In this document: positions 26,852-31,261 of the stretch, piece after piece
How the letters are laid out: each line of letters opens with the position of its first letter
Numbering within the stretch: the first letter of the stretch is position 1
Origin: Albidovulum litorale
GTDB lineage: Bacteria; Pseudomonadota; Alphaproteobacteria; Rhodobacterales; Rhodobacteraceae
Length of the DNA: 64,000 nucleotides
Assembly: GCF_025751495.1 (NCBI RefSeq)
Contig: NZ_JAOWKZ010000003.1
Coordinates: 558,001 to 622,000 of the forward strand
Direction: 5' to 3'
The notes under the pieces: generated by a model
Told to the model about the DNA's origin: nothing
Database searches by the model: none
Seen by the model: only the letters and a program-made list of their open reading frames with translations
Program-made: the position numbers and the translations under genes

Positions 26852-27847
26852 TCAGGCGTTCACATCAACGACGACACGGCCCTTGACCTGACCTTTCAGA
26901 ATATCGCGGCCGAGGCCGGGCAGGTCCGAAAGCGTCGCGGGCCGGATCATCGCGTCTAGCTTGTCCATTGGCAGGTCCTGAGCAATCCGTTCCCACGCGC
27001 GGACACGGTTTGCGTAGGGCTGCATGACCGAGTCGATGCCCAGAAGGTTAACGCCGCGCAGGATGAAGGGGGTGATCAGAGCGCCTTCGATGGCAGCGCC
27101 CCCGGCCAAGCCCACGGCAGCGACCGAAGTGCCATATTTCATCTGTTTCAAGACGCGGCCAAGCATCGCGCCCGCAACCGCATCAATGCAACCTGCCCAT
27201 TGTTCGCCCTCAAGGGGCTTCTTCGTCACTTCGGTCAGGTCTTCCCGCGCAACGATCTGGCTTGCGCCAAGGCTTTTCAGATAGTCTGCCGTCTCGGGCC
27301 GCCCGGTGACGGCGGCGACCTCATGGCCAAGCTTGGCGAGGATCGCGACCGCGACCGAACCGACGCCACCAGCGGCGCCAGTCACCAGAACCGGACCGTG
27401 GCCCGGCTGAAGCCCGTGATCCTCAAGCGCCATGACCGAGAGCATGGAGGTCAGGCCCGCCGTACCCACCGCCATTGCCTGACGGGTGCTCAGGCCCGCA
27501 GGCAGCGGCACGAGCCAGTCGGCGCGGACGGAGGCCTTCTGGGCATAGCCGCCCCAATGCGCCTCGCCCACGCGCCAGCCGGTCAGAACGACCTTGTCGC
27601 CCGCCTTGTAACGCGGGTCGGACGACTTTTCGACAGTCCCGGCAAAGTCGATCCCTGGCACATGGGGGTAGTTGCGAACCAACCCGCCGCCCGGCCCGAT
27701 ACACAGACCGTCCTTGTAGTTCACCGTCGAGTATTCGACGGCGACCAAAACCTCGCTTTCGGGCAGGCGGCTTTCCTCGATCGCCTGAACGCTGGCCGAC
27801 GTCTTTCCGCTTTCTTCGTCCTTCGTGACAACCAGAGCGTTGATCAT
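26852..27847 (-). CDS. acuI: Acryloyl-CoA reductase, AcuI type (YhdH family)
   Basis: This 331-residue zinc-independent medium-chain reductase family protein would reduce acryloyl-CoA to propionyl-CoA with NADPH, detoxifying a product of DMSP breakdown. It has the YhdH/AcuI features: YSTVNYKDGLCIGPGG near residue 38, YPHVPGIDFAGTV, and the nucleotide-binding GAAGGVGSVAVAILAKLGH near 155. The ATG at 27847 follows GAGGAGAGGC; the longer frame lacks such a site. It starts 10 bases after the dmdA stop. In Ruegeria pomeroyi acuI likewise lies directly downstream of dmdA, which strongly supports this assignment over a generic quinone reductase. Confidence 0.92.
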   Translation of the reverse strand: MINALVVTKDEESGKTSASVQAIEESRLPESEVLVAVEYSTVNYKDGLCIGPGGGLVRNYPHVPGIDFAGTVEKSSDPRYKAGDKVVLTGWRVGEAHWGGYAQKASVRADWLVPLPAGLSTRQAMAVGTAGLTSMLSVMALEDHGLQPGHGPVLVTGAAGGVGSVAVAILAKLGHEVAAVTGRPETADYLKSLGASQIVAREDLTEVTKKPLEGEQWAGCIDAVAGAMLGRVLKQMKYGTSVAAVGLAGGAAIEGALITPFILRGVNLLGIDSVMQPYANRVRAWERIAQDLPMDKLDAMIRPATLSDLPGLGRDILKGQVKGRVVVDVNA

Positions 27848-27857
27848 GCCTCTCTCC

Positions 27858-28946
27858 TCAAATCCAGAACTTCGCCTGCAAGACGGCGTTTCGCATGCCG
27901 TCCTGCGTTTCCACTTCGATCTTGCTGCCCGCATCCCAATGGCTGTCGGCGATCATGCCGATGGCGACATTGGTCCCGAAATCGGGGCTTCGGACGGCAC
28001 TTGTCACCTGTCCGACCCGTTTCCCTCCGGCATAGACATGCCAGAGCCGGTCGCACGGAGGAATGTCGCCCTCGATCGCCAGGGCCCGGATCATCCGGCG
28101 CGCTGGACGCAGGCCCAGCCCCGCCTTGCCGATGTACTCGCCGGGCGCATTGACGAACTTGCCCAAGCCCGCCTCCATCGGCGTGTTTTCGCGGGTCATG
28201 TCATTGCCATAGGACAGGAGTCCACCCTCGACCCGTTCGATCAGGTTGGGGCAACCGGCACGGACATCCATATCCTCACCCGCCTTAAAGAGCGCGTCCC
28301 AGAGCGGCATGCCGAGGTCGAAGTCATCGACATAAATCTCGAACCCGCCCTGCTTGGAATAGCCCGACCGGGCGATGATGAAGTCGTGCCCTTCGAAAGC
28401 CAACCGCTTGTAGCGGAAGAAACGGATATCACGCACCGCGTCGCCAAAGACCCGCGCCATCAGGTCGTCCGATTTCGGCCCCTGAATGGCGAGCGGGGAG
28501 ACGTCGGGTTCCTCCACCACGACATCCAGTTCCAGCGCATCCGCGATACCCAGCACGTATTGCAGGAAATCGCTGTCGGCGATGGAGATCCAGTAGTGAT
28601 CGGGGGCGAGTTTCACCGCCACAGGATCGTTCAACATGCCGCCATGCCGGTCCACGACCGGAATGTAATAGCACTGGTCGTCCGCCATCTTTGAAAGGTC
28701 GCGGGGGGAGATCAGCGTCATCAACCGCAACGCATCCGGACCTTTCACGCTCACCTGCCGCTCGCAGGCTACATCCCAAACCTGAACATTGCGCTTCAGG
28801 TGATGGTAATCATTGACGAAATCCTGCCCGAACCGGGTCGGCAGCAGCATGTGGTTATAGACCGTATAGCCCTTGACCCCGGCGGCTTCGACACCGGGCG
28901 TGAAAGGGGTGCGGCGCACGCGCCGCGAGGGGGTGATGTCGGCCAT
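27858..28946 (-). CDS. dmdA: Dimethylsulfoniopropionate demethylase
   Basis: This 362-residue tetrahydrofolate-dependent enzyme moves a methyl group from DMSP to tetrahydrofolate, giving 3-methylmercaptopropionate; it starts the demethylation route that supplies carbon and reduced sulphur to marine bacteria. It belongs to the GcvT fold, seen in the N-terminal KGYTVYNHMLLPTRF region, QVWDVACERQVSVKGPDA and DLGMPLWDALF. The opening SRRVRRTPFTPGVEAAGVK and the pairing with acuI separate DmdA from ordinary glycine cleavage T-proteins and dimethylglycine enzymes. It lies 17 bases after the DUF1326 gene and 10 bases before acuI. A related non-DMSP demethylase remains a smaller possibility. Confidence 0.9.
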   Translation of the reverse strand: MADITPSRRVRRTPFTPGVEAAGVKGYTVYNHMLLPTRFGQDFVNDYHHLKRNVQVWDVACERQVSVKGPDALRLMTLISPRDLSKMADDQCYYIPVVDRHGGMLNDPVAVKLAPDHYWISIADSDFLQYVLGIADALELDVVVEEPDVSPLAIQGPKSDDLMARVFGDAVRDIRFFRYKRLAFEGHDFIIARSGYSKQGGFEIYVDDFDLGMPLWDALFKAGEDMDVRAGCPNLIERVEGGLLSYGNDMTRENTPMEAGLGKFVNAPGEYIGKAGLGLRPARRMIRALAIEGDIPPCDRLWHVYAGGKRVGQVTSAVRSPDFGTNVAIGMIADSHWDAGSKIEVETQDGMRNAVLQAKFWI

Positions 28947-28963
28947 GTGTGTCCCCGATCAGG

Positions 28964-29584
28964 TCAGTTCGGACCATGCCAGTCGATCTGGCAGATCTCG
29001 GCCGAGCGGCCGTCGAAATCCCAGACCCGGCCGAAGGCGCGGACCTTGCCCTTCGATGCCTTGGCGACCGTGATATCCGGCCCCATCCAGTATTCGGTAT
29101 TGGTGACAACGATATCCTCGCCCTTGTTGCCGGGCACCGGCGCGATCTCGCCCTTGATGGCACGGCCCACGGTCAGACGGCGGGTCTTGCCTTCGGTCTC
29201 ATAGGTGACGGGTGCCCGTTCAGCACCGAGGAATTCGCTGACCAGCACCTTGAACAGGCCAGTCGTGCCGCGCGCCTGGCCTGTGAAGACCTTCAGAAGG
29301 CCCTCATAGGCCGTATCGCTCGCCCGGTCATCGATATAGGCCGCCGCCTTCCAGTTGCCGCGCCCCATCTTGCCGGGAATTTCGAGGAGGAGGCCGATAT
29401 TGAGGCCGGAAATATCCTCGCCATCATAGTGCCCCTCGTCGATGCGGATACCAGCCCAGCCCATGCAATAGCCCTCGGTCGGGGGATGATCGCCGAGCGA
29501 GATCACGCAAGGACAGAAGACCGTGCAGTTGCAGTTGAGGATCAGTTCCCCCTTGATGGCCCATTCGGGCAAGGTGTCGGCCAT
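28964..29584 (-). CDS. DUF1326 protein with clustered cysteines
   Basis: This 206-residue soluble protein matches the DUF1326 family, whose function is unknown. The N-terminus has a dense cysteine cluster CNCTVFCPC (C18, C20, C24, C26) with a further C40 in TEGYCMGW and one cysteine near the C-terminus, a pattern that suggests metal or thiol chemistry. No signal peptide or membrane segment is seen. It begins 12 bases after the DUF2182 membrane gene and ends 17 bases before dmdA, so it is co-transcribed with both. The common pairing of DUF1326 with DUF2182 points to a functional partnership. Confidence 0.88.
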   Translation of the reverse strand: MADTLPEWAIKGELILNCNCTVFCPCVISLGDHPPTEGYCMGWAGIRIDEGHYDGEDISGLNIGLLLEIPGKMGRGNWKAAAYIDDRASDTAYEGLLKVFTGQARGTTGLFKVLVSEFLGAERAPVTYETEGKTRRLTVGRAIKGEIAPVPGNKGEDIVVTNTEYWMGPDITVAKASKGKVRAFGRVWDFDGRSAEICQIDWHGPN

Positions 29585-29596
29585 ATCGGTCCTCCG

Positions 29597-30403
29597 TCAG
29601 ACAAGTTGCAATGCGCGAAGGATCGAAACACCCCCCGCGAGGATCAGCGCCCAACCGGCGGGCCGGGTGAGCCAACGCCCGATCTCGGGCAGTTTTTCCA
29701 AGGTCATGAAGTGCGTCGCCGCCCCCATCCAGATCAGGTTCATCGTACCGCCGATGAAGCCGAGCGCCATCAGTGCCCAGCAGCAGCCAAGGCAAAGCGC
29801 ACCAAGCCGCAGGCCCATATCAAGCGCCGCCACTGCGCCGGGGCGCCAATGGCTCATGAAGAAGGTCAGCGGCATCCGGCATTTCGCAAGGCAGGCAGCC
29901 TTGAAGACCGAGAACTGATAGGCCCCAGCCCCGAAGAGCAGTCCGGCGGTCAGCCAGGGCGACAGGCTTGCCCCTGCAGGCGTCAGCATGCCGTTCCGCG
30001 CCAGCCCCCACTGCGCCGCCGCACCGATGACCGACGCGCCAAGCCAGATCGCAGTATACCCCGCGACAAGCGCCAGTGCGCCCGCCCCGTTCGTTGCTCC
30101 GGTCGCCGAAAGATCGGTGAAGGTTCGAAGCGCGGGCACGAAGGTCGGCAGCATCATCGCCATGGCCATCAGCGCCCACATCGCCCAGAGGGCAAAGGGG
30201 TTCGCCTCGGCCGCTGAAGCGCAAAGCGCGGCCCAGAATTCTGCCGGCACATCCGCCAACTCCGAGCCCGGCAAACCACGTGCCATCAGCACGACGGCAA
30301 TCCATGACAGAAGGATCAGCGCATAAAAACCAAGCCAGCCCGCAGCGCGCGGGCTGAGCCAGACAGGCACTCGCCTTTCACCACGCAGGATCGGTGCGGA
30401 CAT
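29597..30403 (-). CDS. DUF2182 predicted metal-binding integral membrane protein
   Basis: This 268-residue protein has about six membrane segments (near residues 22-42, 68-90, 108-130, 150-168, 190-215, 248-266). It carries the conserved family features C171-LAK-C175-R-M-P, H185-W, and ALCLGCCWALM (C204, C207, C208) followed by GGTMNLIWMG. The cysteine pairs facing the membrane core or its surface are the basis of the metal-binding prediction; the metal is unknown. It is the first gene of the four-gene operon with DUF1326, dmdA and acuI, with AGGGGGC before its ATG, and is divergent from an FCD-type regulator across 108 bases containing a clear operator. Confidence 0.88.
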   Translation of the reverse strand: MSAPILRGERRVPVWLSPRAAGWLGFYALILLSWIAVVLMARGLPGSELADVPAEFWAALCASAAEANPFALWAMWALMAMAMMLPTFVPALRTFTDLSATGATNGAGALALVAGYTAIWLGASVIGAAAQWGLARNGMLTPAGASLSPWLTAGLLFGAGAYQFSVFKAACLAKCRMPLTFFMSHWRPGAVAALDMGLRLGALCLGCCWALMALGFIGGTMNLIWMGAATHFMTLEKLPEIGRWLTRPAGWALILAGGVSILRALQLV

Positions 30404-30473
30404 GGATGCCCCCTGGCAAAAAAGGATGGACGGACAGCCCCGTCCTGCCTAGGGTCTACCTATCCGCGGCAAA

Positions 30474-30496
30474 TGTCAAACATTTAATGTCTGACA
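30474..30496. promoter_or_regulatory. Near-perfect 23-bp palindrome between the dmdA operon and its divergent GntR/FCD regulator
   Basis: Ten of eleven base pairs around the centre at 30485 are complementary; the outer arms are TGTCA and TGACA. Two shorter dyads are nested here, AAATGT-CAA-ACATTT (30471-30485) and TGTC-T-GACA (30488-30496), the latter close to the TTGTCnGACAA form used by FadR-subfamily regulators. On the minus strand the site includes a perfect TTGACA (30474-30479) that could be the -35 of the DUF2182-DUF1326-dmdA-acuI operon, and it lies 15 bases before the regulator ATG. Control of both directions by the neighbouring regulator is the natural reading. Confidence 0.75.
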
Positions 30497-30511
30497 ATTG
30501 AGGGAAGAGAT

Positions 30512-31261
30512 ATGAAAGGCCTGCAACTCGGCACCGAAGGCGAATTGCCGATCCGCATTGCGGCGGCGATCCGCGATGCAATTGTCGCGGGGCGGCTGAT
30601 CGTGGATGAACGCCTGCCTTCGGAACAGGAACTGGCCGAACAGTTCGGCGTCTCACGTCCCACGGTGCGGGAAGCGTTAAAACGGCTTGCGGCGCAAAGC
30701 CTGATCCGTACGCAGCGGGGCGCCACCGGGGGAGCCTTTATCAACCGGATATCGTACGAAGAGGCGGCCGGACAGCAGATCACCACGTCCACACTGTTGC
30801 TCAGCATGAATGCGGTCGATTTCGAGACCGCCTGCGAGGCCCGTTATGCGCTCGAACGCGCCTGCGTGCCCTTTGCCGCCGAACGGCGTGAGGCTGACCA
30901 TCTCGCTGCGATGCGGGCCGAGATCTTCCGCCAGTCGCAACCCGGCCTGTCGGACGAAAGCTTCTGCGCTTCTGACGTTGCCTTTCACCGCGCGCTCGTC
31001 GATGCGGCGGGCAATCCCGTGCTCTCCTACCAGCTTGCGGGCGCAGTCGAGGCGATGCAGCCCCTGATGAATATGATCACCTTCACCGCCCGTTCGCGCG
31101 AAAGGATCGTGTCCCTTCACACGGCGATAGCCGATGCCATCGAGTCCAAGAATCCTGCAACCGCCGAGGCGGCACTGGCAGAACTTGCCACCTACACAAT
31201 CGGTCTAGCCGCCGATATCCGCGCCAAACGCCTTACGACTAAAGGCGCGGCAGGGCAGTGA
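30512..31261 (+). CDS. GntR-family transcriptional regulator, FadR/FCD subfamily
   Basis: This 249-residue regulator has an N-terminal winged helix-turn-helix (LPSEQELAEQFGVSRPTVREALKRLAAQ, about residues 33-60) and a C-terminal FCD ligand-binding domain with the histidine-containing DVAFHRALVDAAGNPVL stretch and further conserved residues that usually bind a metal and a carboxylate or acyl-CoA. It is divergent from the dmdA operon and has a 23-bp palindrome just before its ATG, so autoregulation and control of DMSP metabolism are likely. Candidate effectors such as DMSP, acrylate or acryloyl-CoA are inference. It ends 15 bases from a convergent gene. Confidence 0.92.
   Translation: MKGLQLGTEGELPIRIAAAIRDAIVAGRLIVDERLPSEQELAEQFGVSRPTVREALKRLAAQSLIRTQRGATGGAFINRISYEEAAGQQITTSTLLLSMNAVDFETACEARYALERACVPFAAERREADHLAAMRAEIFRQSQPGLSDESFCASDVAFHRALVDAAGNPVLSYQLAGAVEAMQPLMNMITFTARSRERIVSLHTAIADAIESKNPATAEAALAELATYTIGLAADIRAKRLTTKGAAGQ

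What the first reader, a model, noticed from the sequence alone, without database searches (positions are those of the whole stretch)
26852..31261. DMSP demethylation island led by two uncharacterised cysteine-rich proteins
The operon order is DUF2182-DUF1326-dmdA-acuI with gaps of 12, 17 and 10 bases, divergent from an FCD-type regulator. dmdA-acuI pairing is known in Roseobacters; the presence of the DUF pair at the head of the same transcript suggests a helper function, for example metal or thiol handling related to methylmercaptopropionate or methanethiol. That role is inference.
Basis: partly seen in the sequence, partly recalled or inferred. Interest (0 to 1): 0.7.

Follow-up and report, generated by a model that had tools for sequence, protein, structure and literature searches.

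The report
Metal-handling gene pair in acrylate operon
In marine Rhodobacteraceae, the genes that break down the algal sulfur compound DMSP often share an operon with two overlooked, probably metal-handling genes, and family-wide comparison ties this pair to the acrylate-detoxifying gene more than to the demethylase.

Summary
In detail: ppoB2 (old name DUF2182), DUF1326, dmdA and acuI lie on the - strand with gaps of 12, 17 and 10 bases, divergent from a GntR/FCD regulator. The linkage is widespread. Of 149 sampled genomes (148 genera), 64 carry dmdA over the cut-off; 48 of these have ppoB2 within 5 kb, always upstream on the same strand. The interpretation needs correcting. DUF2182 is PpoB2, a family with a copper chaperone in Marinomonas. 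The partner that persists is acuI: 17 pairs sit beside acuI without a nearby dmdA, and dmdA beside the pair comes or goes at least 7 times on the DUF1326 tree. A double operator, TGTCWGACA twice, precedes most of the named operons, also pair-less dmdA-acuI of a Ruegeria pomeroyi strain; that species' operon is reported acrylate-induced. I propose that PpoB2 loads a soft metal, probably Cu(I), onto the five invariant cysteines of DUF1326 in an acrylate/acryloyl-CoA response. Operon membership is well supported; metal and function are inferred.

The parts
30474..30496 (.). double operator TGTCAAACA-TTTAA-TGTCTGACA between gntR and ppoB2; conserved as two TGTCWGACA boxes
   Evidence: the only match of the strict pattern in this genome; <=3 mismatches in 55 of 64 named pair loci (the pattern was drawn from these loci) and in 0 of 216 shuffles of them
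30512..31261 (+). GntR/FCD regulator, divergent from the operon
   Evidence: PF00392 and PF07729 over cut-off; divergent GntR in 72 of 80 named dmdA loci
29597..30403 (-). ppoB2 (DUF2182, COG5486): multi-helix membrane protein with MxxxMxxxMM and CxxxC / CLGCC motifs
   Evidence: PF09948 196.8 bits; invariant or >=90% residues in 76 aligned sequences; AF2 pLDDT 90.7
28964..29584 (-). DUF1326: protein with CxCx3CxC plus a fifth Cys, acetoacetate-decarboxylase-like barrel predicted
   Evidence: PF07040 174.9 bits; C18 C20 C24 C26 C40 invariant in 80 sequences; AF2 pLDDT 97.1; fold search
27858..28946 (-). dmdA, DMSP demethylase
   Evidence: NF009133 577.4 bits, cut-off 410; 72% identity to the protein at a Ruegeria pomeroyi strain SZCCDBG043 locus (L182)
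26852..27847 (-). acuI, acryloyl-CoA reductase family
   Evidence: TIGR02823 436.7 bits over cut-off 297.25; NF051456 417 under cut-off 440

Best explanation
The four genes form one GntR-controlled operon that answers acrylate or acryloyl-CoA. PpoB2, in the membrane, loads a soft metal (most likely Cu(I)) onto the five-cysteine site of its constant partner DUF1326, as Marinomonas PpoB2 supplies copper to the tyrosinase encoded beside it. The loaded DUF1326 protects metabolism while thiol-reactive acrylate/acryloyl-CoA is made from DMSP and removed by AcuI: either as a metal/thiol buffer or as a metal-dependent enzyme on an acetoacetate-decarboxylase-like barrel. Shown here: gene content, the conserved linkage, the shared operator in front of most dmdA-type operons, the stronger tie to acuI than to dmdA, the motifs and the predicted folds. 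Inferred: acrylate as inducer in this strain, copper as the metal, PpoB2 to DUF1326 transfer, and the protective role.
For: Linkage in 48 of 64 dmdA genomes. Of 71 PpoB2 genes with DUF1326 downstream ('type 1'), 42 lie near dmdA and acuI, 6 near dmdA only, 17 near acuI only and 6 near neither; of 20 with DUF1326 upstream ('type 2', two of them with a DUF1326 on both sides), 0 lie near either gene. DUF1326 lies within 5 kb of 91 of 98 PpoB2 matches. Type 1 and type 2 fall on the two sides of a branch with support 98 on the DUF1326 tree, and the label 'dmdA beside the pair' changes at least 7 times when only starred branches are trusted, 15 times on the full tree among dmdA and acuI-only rows. 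In one genome without acuI over the cut-off, crotonyl-CoA reductase, another enoyl-CoA reductase, follows the pair (L127). Operator: 33 of 38 distinct strict-pattern sites in 149 genomes have ppoB2, dmdA or acuI within 6 kb downstream, 3 of them acuI alone; the reversed control pattern matched once. The same site lies before pair-less dmdA-acuI in a R. pomeroyi strain (L182); in R. pomeroyi DSS-3 that operon is reported to be induced about 10-14 fold by acrylate or DMSP and not by MMPA (PMC3338564 passages). Invariant Cys in both proteins and Mx3Mx3MM in PpoB2. PpoB2 copper transfer in Marinomonas (PMC2855505 passages).
Against: No transcript, metal or phenotype data. The R. pomeroyi strain, three Leisingera and other dmdA loci lack the pair (13 of 80 named loci, two of these with dmdA near a contig start), so it is not essential for demethylation. 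Of seven such pair-less genomes searched, six have some PpoB2-family gene elsewhere, which could replace it. Of 16 acuI-only loci, only 2 show the double operator within three mismatches and 4 a divergent GntR, so the shared regulator does not cover most acuI-only pairs. In those longer stretches (about 480 bases) shuffles sometimes reach three mismatches too, and 1 of 18 type 2 loci does. Type 2 pairs have no acrylate link, so the biochemistry cannot be specific to acrylate. Copper rests on one characterised relative; zinc or another metal is not excluded. Six type 1 pairs lie near neither gene (two, G060 and G030, close to contig ends).
Confidence: 0.4

Rival explanations
1. The pair loads copper into a separate cuproenzyme of the demethylation route, above all the methanethiol oxidase MtoX (SBP56 family), a relative of which is reported to contain copper.
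For: SBP56 goes with dmdA across 149 genomes (39 of 64 with dmdA, 9 of 85 without; 48 of the 52 genomes with a match counted, four with weak or short matches, G023, G031, G037 and G075, dropped). SBP56 lies directly beyond gntR in G043 (L317) and by dmdA in G066, and a weak PpoB2 match (91.7 bits) lies near SBP56 in G136 (my own narrower HMM did not pick it up). Copper and its putative ligands in MTO are discussed in PMC10936201 (one passage).
Against: Within dmdA genomes the pair and SBP56 are not associated (30 of 48 against 9 of 16), and only 4 of 15 dmdA-less genomes with pair plus acuI have SBP56.
Confidence: 0.12
2. One reading: a helper for methylmercaptopropionate or methanethiol, that is, for the demethylation branch itself.
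For: 48 of 64 dmdA genomes have the pair just upstream of dmdA; an acyl-CoA ligase lies between DUF1326 and dmdA in three of the 20 dmdA loci laid out (L137, L141, L142; family).
Against: The pair remains with acuI in 15 genomes that lack dmdA over the cut-off, and the nearest tree neighbour of the window's DUF1326 is an acuI-only locus (G129). A R. pomeroyi strain, of a model demethylating species, lacks the pair at dmdA (L182).
Confidence: 0.13
3. DUF1326 is itself a metal-dependent enzyme of the acetoacetate-decarboxylase fold acting on an acrylate- or acyl-CoA-derived compound, and PpoB2 is its dedicated metal loader.
Against: No Lys is among the invariant or nearly invariant columns, so not Schiff-base chemistry as in acetoacetate decarboxylase (that mechanism recalled). 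A shared fold shows no function; no substrate known.
Confidence: 0.22
4. The linkage is only inherited gene order, without functional meaning.
For: The dmdA and acuI cases examined here are nearly all in one family; wider gene order (photolyase, trgA, cyclopropane-synthase-like and BCCT genes) is shared by a number of loci.
Against: Single flanking slots share one homologous gene in at most 12 of 60 loci, while dmdA beside the pair comes and goes at least 7 times, and 0 of 20 type 2 pairs sit there.
Confidence: 0.1

Closest known systems
dmdA-acuI operon of Ruegeria pomeroyi (PMC3338564, passages)
   Same: dmdA then acuI; in the strain seen here (SZCCDBG043, L182) a divergent GntR and the same type of double operator
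   Different: no ppoB2-DUF1326 at that locus; the window and most sampled dmdA relatives have them. Strain DSS-3 itself was not examined
ppoB1-ppoB2 tyrosinase operon of Marinomonas mediterranea (PMC2855505, passages)
   Same: PpoB2 family membrane protein next to a putative metal-receiving partner
   Different: partner is DUF1326, not tyrosinase; context is acrylate/DMSP metabolism
acuR-acuI-dddL operon of Rhodobacter sphaeroides (PMC3017554, start of abstract; described in PMC3338564 passages)
   Same: acuI in a regulated operon for DMSP catabolism
   Different: TetR-type AcuR and a lyase there; GntR/FCD, the pair and dmdA here
Acetoacetate decarboxylase superfamily
   Same: predicted barrel fold of DUF1326
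   Different: no conserved Lys; N-terminal Cys cluster instead

Membership tests
DMSP demethylase DmdA | score over NF009133 cut-off 410 | tested here: met
   577.4 bits
DMSP demethylase DmdA | demethylates DMSP with tetrahydrofolate (recalled) | not testable with these tools
   72% identity to the protein at a R. pomeroyi locus is indirect
AcuI / YhdH acryloyl-CoA reductase | score over subfamily TIGR02823 cut-off 297.25 | tested here: met
   436.7 bits
AcuI equivalog NF051456 | score over cut-off 440 | tested here: not met
   417 bits; so named as acryloyl-CoA reductase family, not as proven AcuI equivalog
PpoB2 (PF09948) | score over cut-off 28.7 and conserved Cys/Met positions | tested here: met
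   196.8 bits; C175 C204 C207 C208 M79 M84 invariant, M75 M83 C171 in >=90% of 76 sequences
PpoB2 (PF09948) | transfers copper to a client protein | not testable with these tools
   described for one member (PMC2855505 passages)
DUF1326 (PF07040) | score over cut-off 25 | tested here: met
   174.9 bits
Acetoacetate decarboxylase | fold | tested here: met
Acetoacetate decarboxylase | catalytic Lys (recalled) | tested here: not met
   no Lys among invariant or >=90% columns of 80 sequences
DMSP/acrylate regulon of the divergent GntR | double TGTCWGACA operator in front of the operon | tested here: met
   window 30474-30496, only site of the strict pattern in this genome
DMSP/acrylate regulon of the divergent GntR | induction by acrylate | not testable with these tools
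   reported for R. pomeroyi DSS-3 dmdA-acuI

The most novel reading that the evidence does not exclude
DUF1326 is a new metalloprotein or metalloenzyme family built on the acetoacetate-decarboxylase barrel, loaded with copper by PpoB2, and its type 1 branch is a dedicated, acrylate-induced component of bacterial DMSP and acrylate metabolism that has escaped notice, perhaps because the model species R. pomeroyi (strain SZCCDBG043 seen here) lacks it at its dmdA locus.
Probability: 0.3. Interest if true: 0.8.

Novelty: new variant of a known kind. Interest (0 to 1): 0.62.

Why it matters
dmdA is a marker gene for how much oceanic DMSP sulfur is kept from becoming DMS. In three quarters of the sampled dmdA genera (48 of 64) two genes whose function in this pathway is unknown lie just upstream of it. 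If they handle copper during acrylate stress, DMSP use, copper status and acrylate toxicity become connected and directly testable, and naturally pair-less strains, such as the R. pomeroyi strain seen here, serve as comparison. It also gives DUF1326 a first functional context, a predicted fold and an invariant cysteine site to test.

Tried and rejected
Methanethiol oxidase as copper client: rejected as the leading reading, because the pair and SBP56 are not associated inside dmdA genomes. Tie to the demethylation branch alone: weakened by acuI-only loci. Cupin DMSP lyases (PF16867): in 71 of 149 genomes (61 over the cut-off); other lyase families were not searched and I drew no conclusion. DmdB equivalog NF005426 in the own genome: best 311 bits against a cut-off of 822, so the rest of the demethylation route was not confirmed. 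Partners of type 2 pairs: a glycosyltransferase, an M20 peptidase, a phosphorylase and others among the neighbours scanned, with no shared theme. PpoB2 gave no clear PDB fold match, which is not evidence of a new fold. No convincing PDB sequence relatives of either protein (best E 0.68 and 0.58). Literature: no paper of the held library has the words DUF2182 or DUF1326; PpoB2 is in 4 and COG5486 in 1. Searches for COG5588 or dmdA (10 of 582 papers listed), dmdA/acuI/operon/cotranscribed, dmdA/GntR/acryloyl-CoA/repressor, dimethylsulfoniopropionate/copper/methanethiol/acrylate and DmdR/dmdA listed no title or abstract start about the pair. I saw passages of five papers (PMC2855505, PMC3338564, PMC4770636, PMC7487153, PMC10936201), none in full. 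Most subscription journals are not held, and Gonzalez et al. 2019, cited for a conserved dmdA operon, could not be read.

The Fisher values ignore relatedness. For the tree, rows under 150 aa and rows identical in their last 150 residues were dropped (85 kept), and it is a quick tree with long branches in type 2; the acuI-only label alone is scattered on it no better than shuffles (182 of 500 as low). The ORF caller in scripts is crude and missed some genes (PpoB2 in several loci), so counts of the pair rest on HMM searches instead. The operator pattern was drawn from the loci on which one search counts it; the strict whole-genome search has its own control.
Full report
What is there. On the - strand of window 26852-30403 four genes follow each other: ppoB2 (PF09948, formerly DUF2182), DUF1326 (PF07040), dmdA and acuI, with gaps of 12, 17 and 10 bases; a GntR/FCD regulator diverges at 30512-31261. 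dmdA passes its curated model (577.4 against 410 bits). acuI passes the subfamily model TIGR02823 but not the narrower AcuI equivalog (417 against 440). The operon's GC content matches the window, so nothing marks it as a recent island.

Is the linkage real? In a sample of 149 genomes from 148 genera, dmdA over the cut-off occurs in 64 genomes (70 matches), PpoB2 in 82 (98 matches) and DUF1326 in 79 (96 matches). In 48 of the 64 dmdA genomes PpoB2 lies within 5 kb, in all 48 upstream on the same strand. Among the 80 nearest named dmdA loci, 67 have both genes upstream, 73 have acuI downstream and 72 a divergent GntR. Outside the operon, the commonest homologous gene in any of six flanking slots occurs in 6 to 12 of 50 to 60 loci. 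That control undercounts genes that change slot: a BCCT transporter gene lies within about 5.5 kb in 31 of 80 loci (my count). Still, the pair's conservation belongs to the operon and not only to general gene order.

What is the pair tied to? PpoB2-DUF1326 pairs come in two orders. With DUF1326 downstream (type 1, 71 pairs), 42 lie near dmdA and acuI, 6 near dmdA only, 17 near acuI only and 6 near neither. With DUF1326 upstream (type 2, 20 pairs, two of which have a DUF1326 on both sides), none lies near dmdA or acuI; 7 further PpoB2 matches, mostly weak or cut short, have no DUF1326 near. Of the 17 genomes with an acuI-only pair, 15 have no dmdA over the cut-off. On a quick DUF1326 tree of 85 rows type 2 separates from type 1 by a branch of support 98; within the whole tree the label 'dmdA beside the pair' changes at least 7 times even if only starred branches are trusted (15 times among dmdA and acuI-only rows on the tree as drawn), and the window's DUF1326 groups with an acuI-only locus. 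In G090 the pair is followed after 25 bases by crotonyl-CoA carboxylase/reductase (TIGR01751, 545 bits), in a genome without acuI over the cut-off. The steady outside partner is therefore more the enoyl-CoA reductase than the demethylase, though 6 pairs lie near dmdA without acuI.

Regulation. Between gntR and ppoB2 lies TGTCAAACATTTAATGTCTGACA (30474-30496). Across named loci the site reads as two TGTCWGACA boxes. Within three mismatches it is found in 55 of 64 pair loci and 7 of 8 pair-less loci with a divergent GntR, against 0 of 216 shuffled sequences (the pattern was drawn from these loci). A strict pattern search of the 149 genomes gave 38 distinct sites in 37 genomes, with one match for the reversed control pattern. 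Of the 38, 33 have genes of this set within 6 kb downstream: 25 pair-dmdA-acuI, 2 pair-acuI, 1 pair-dmdA, 1 dmdA-acuI, 3 acuI alone and 1 a short ppoB2 match; 5 have none of them. The window's own genome has only this one site. A R. pomeroyi strain (SZCCDBG043, L182) carries the same site before its pair-less dmdA-acuI; in R. pomeroyi DSS-3 that operon is reported to be induced about 10-14 fold by acrylate or DMSP but not by MMPA (PMC3338564, passages). Acrylate induction of the pair follows by inference. Against this, of 16 acuI-only loci only 2 show the site within three mismatches and 4 a divergent GntR; in those longer stretches single shuffles also reach three mismatches, as does 1 of 18 type 2 loci. 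Most acuI-only pairs must be regulated otherwise.

Mechanism. I propose that PpoB2 brings a soft metal, most likely Cu(I), to DUF1326, in the way that Marinomonas PpoB2 serves its neighbour. The unit is made when acrylate or acryloyl-CoA appears, a thiol-reactive electrophile that would disturb the glutathione pool which buffers copper (established knowledge, recalled). DUF1326 then acts either as a metal/thiol buffer or as an enzyme on an acrylate-related compound. The data do not decide between these. Methanethiol oxidase as client is not favoured: SBP56 goes with dmdA (39 of 64 against 9 of 85) but not with the pair inside dmdA genomes (30 of 48 against 9 of 16; four weak or short SBP56 matches dropped).

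Further context. A DinB-family gene lies upstream of dmdA in 40 of 80 named loci, 39 of them with the pair; the window lacks it. In a genome of another family (L265) a type 1 pair sits between an EnvZ/OmpR-like two-component system and an acyl-CoA ligase of the same subfamily (NF006020) as one found between DUF1326 and dmdA in Rhodobacteraceae. Of seven pair-less dmdA genomes searched, six have a PpoB2-family gene elsewhere: the R. pomeroyi strain a weak, distant one (99.9 bits) without DUF1326, and the three that I looked at with strong matches (two Leisingera and the L221 genome) a type 2 pair.

Novelty. dmdA-acuI is known, and so are the PpoB2 and DUF1326 families by name. No paper of the held open-access library contains the words DUF2182 or DUF1326, and no title or abstract start in my other listings was about this pair; the library misses much, and I read passages, not whole papers.

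Noticed in passing
L109 (G000:C10:119289-121354): The window's own genome has a second PpoB2 flanked by two DUF1326 genes, away from dmdA and acuI.
   Followed up: partly
L181-L260 upstream of dmdA: A DinB-family gene (possible metal/thiol-transferase type, recalled) lies upstream of dmdA in 40 of 80 named loci, 39 of them together with the pair; absent in the window.
   Followed up: partly
L127 (G090:C9): Crotonyl-CoA carboxylase/reductase follows the pair where acuI stands elsewhere; an aconitase precedes it.
   Followed up: partly
L265 (G156:C14): Type 1 pair outside the family, between an EnvZ/OmpR-like two-component system and an NF006020 acyl-CoA ligase.
   Followed up: partly
L192: A record titled Nocardioides marinus holds the complete gntR-ppoB2-DUF1326-dmdA-acuI-BCCT locus at 68% DmdA identity; possibly a mislabelled assembly.
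   Followed up: no
G000:C9:19571-23625: A DmdA-like homologue under the cut-off (373.9 bits) lies next to an acyl-CoA ligase match in the window's genome.
   Followed up: no
L317 (G043:C11) and G066:C1:189548-192088: SBP56 (methanethiol oxidase family) lies directly beyond gntR in one genome and directly after dmdA in another.
   Followed up: partly
L311 (G442:C1:2712976-2713488): The R. pomeroyi strain genome has a distant PpoB2-family gene without DUF1326, next to a 499-aa gene that I did not identify.
   Followed up: no
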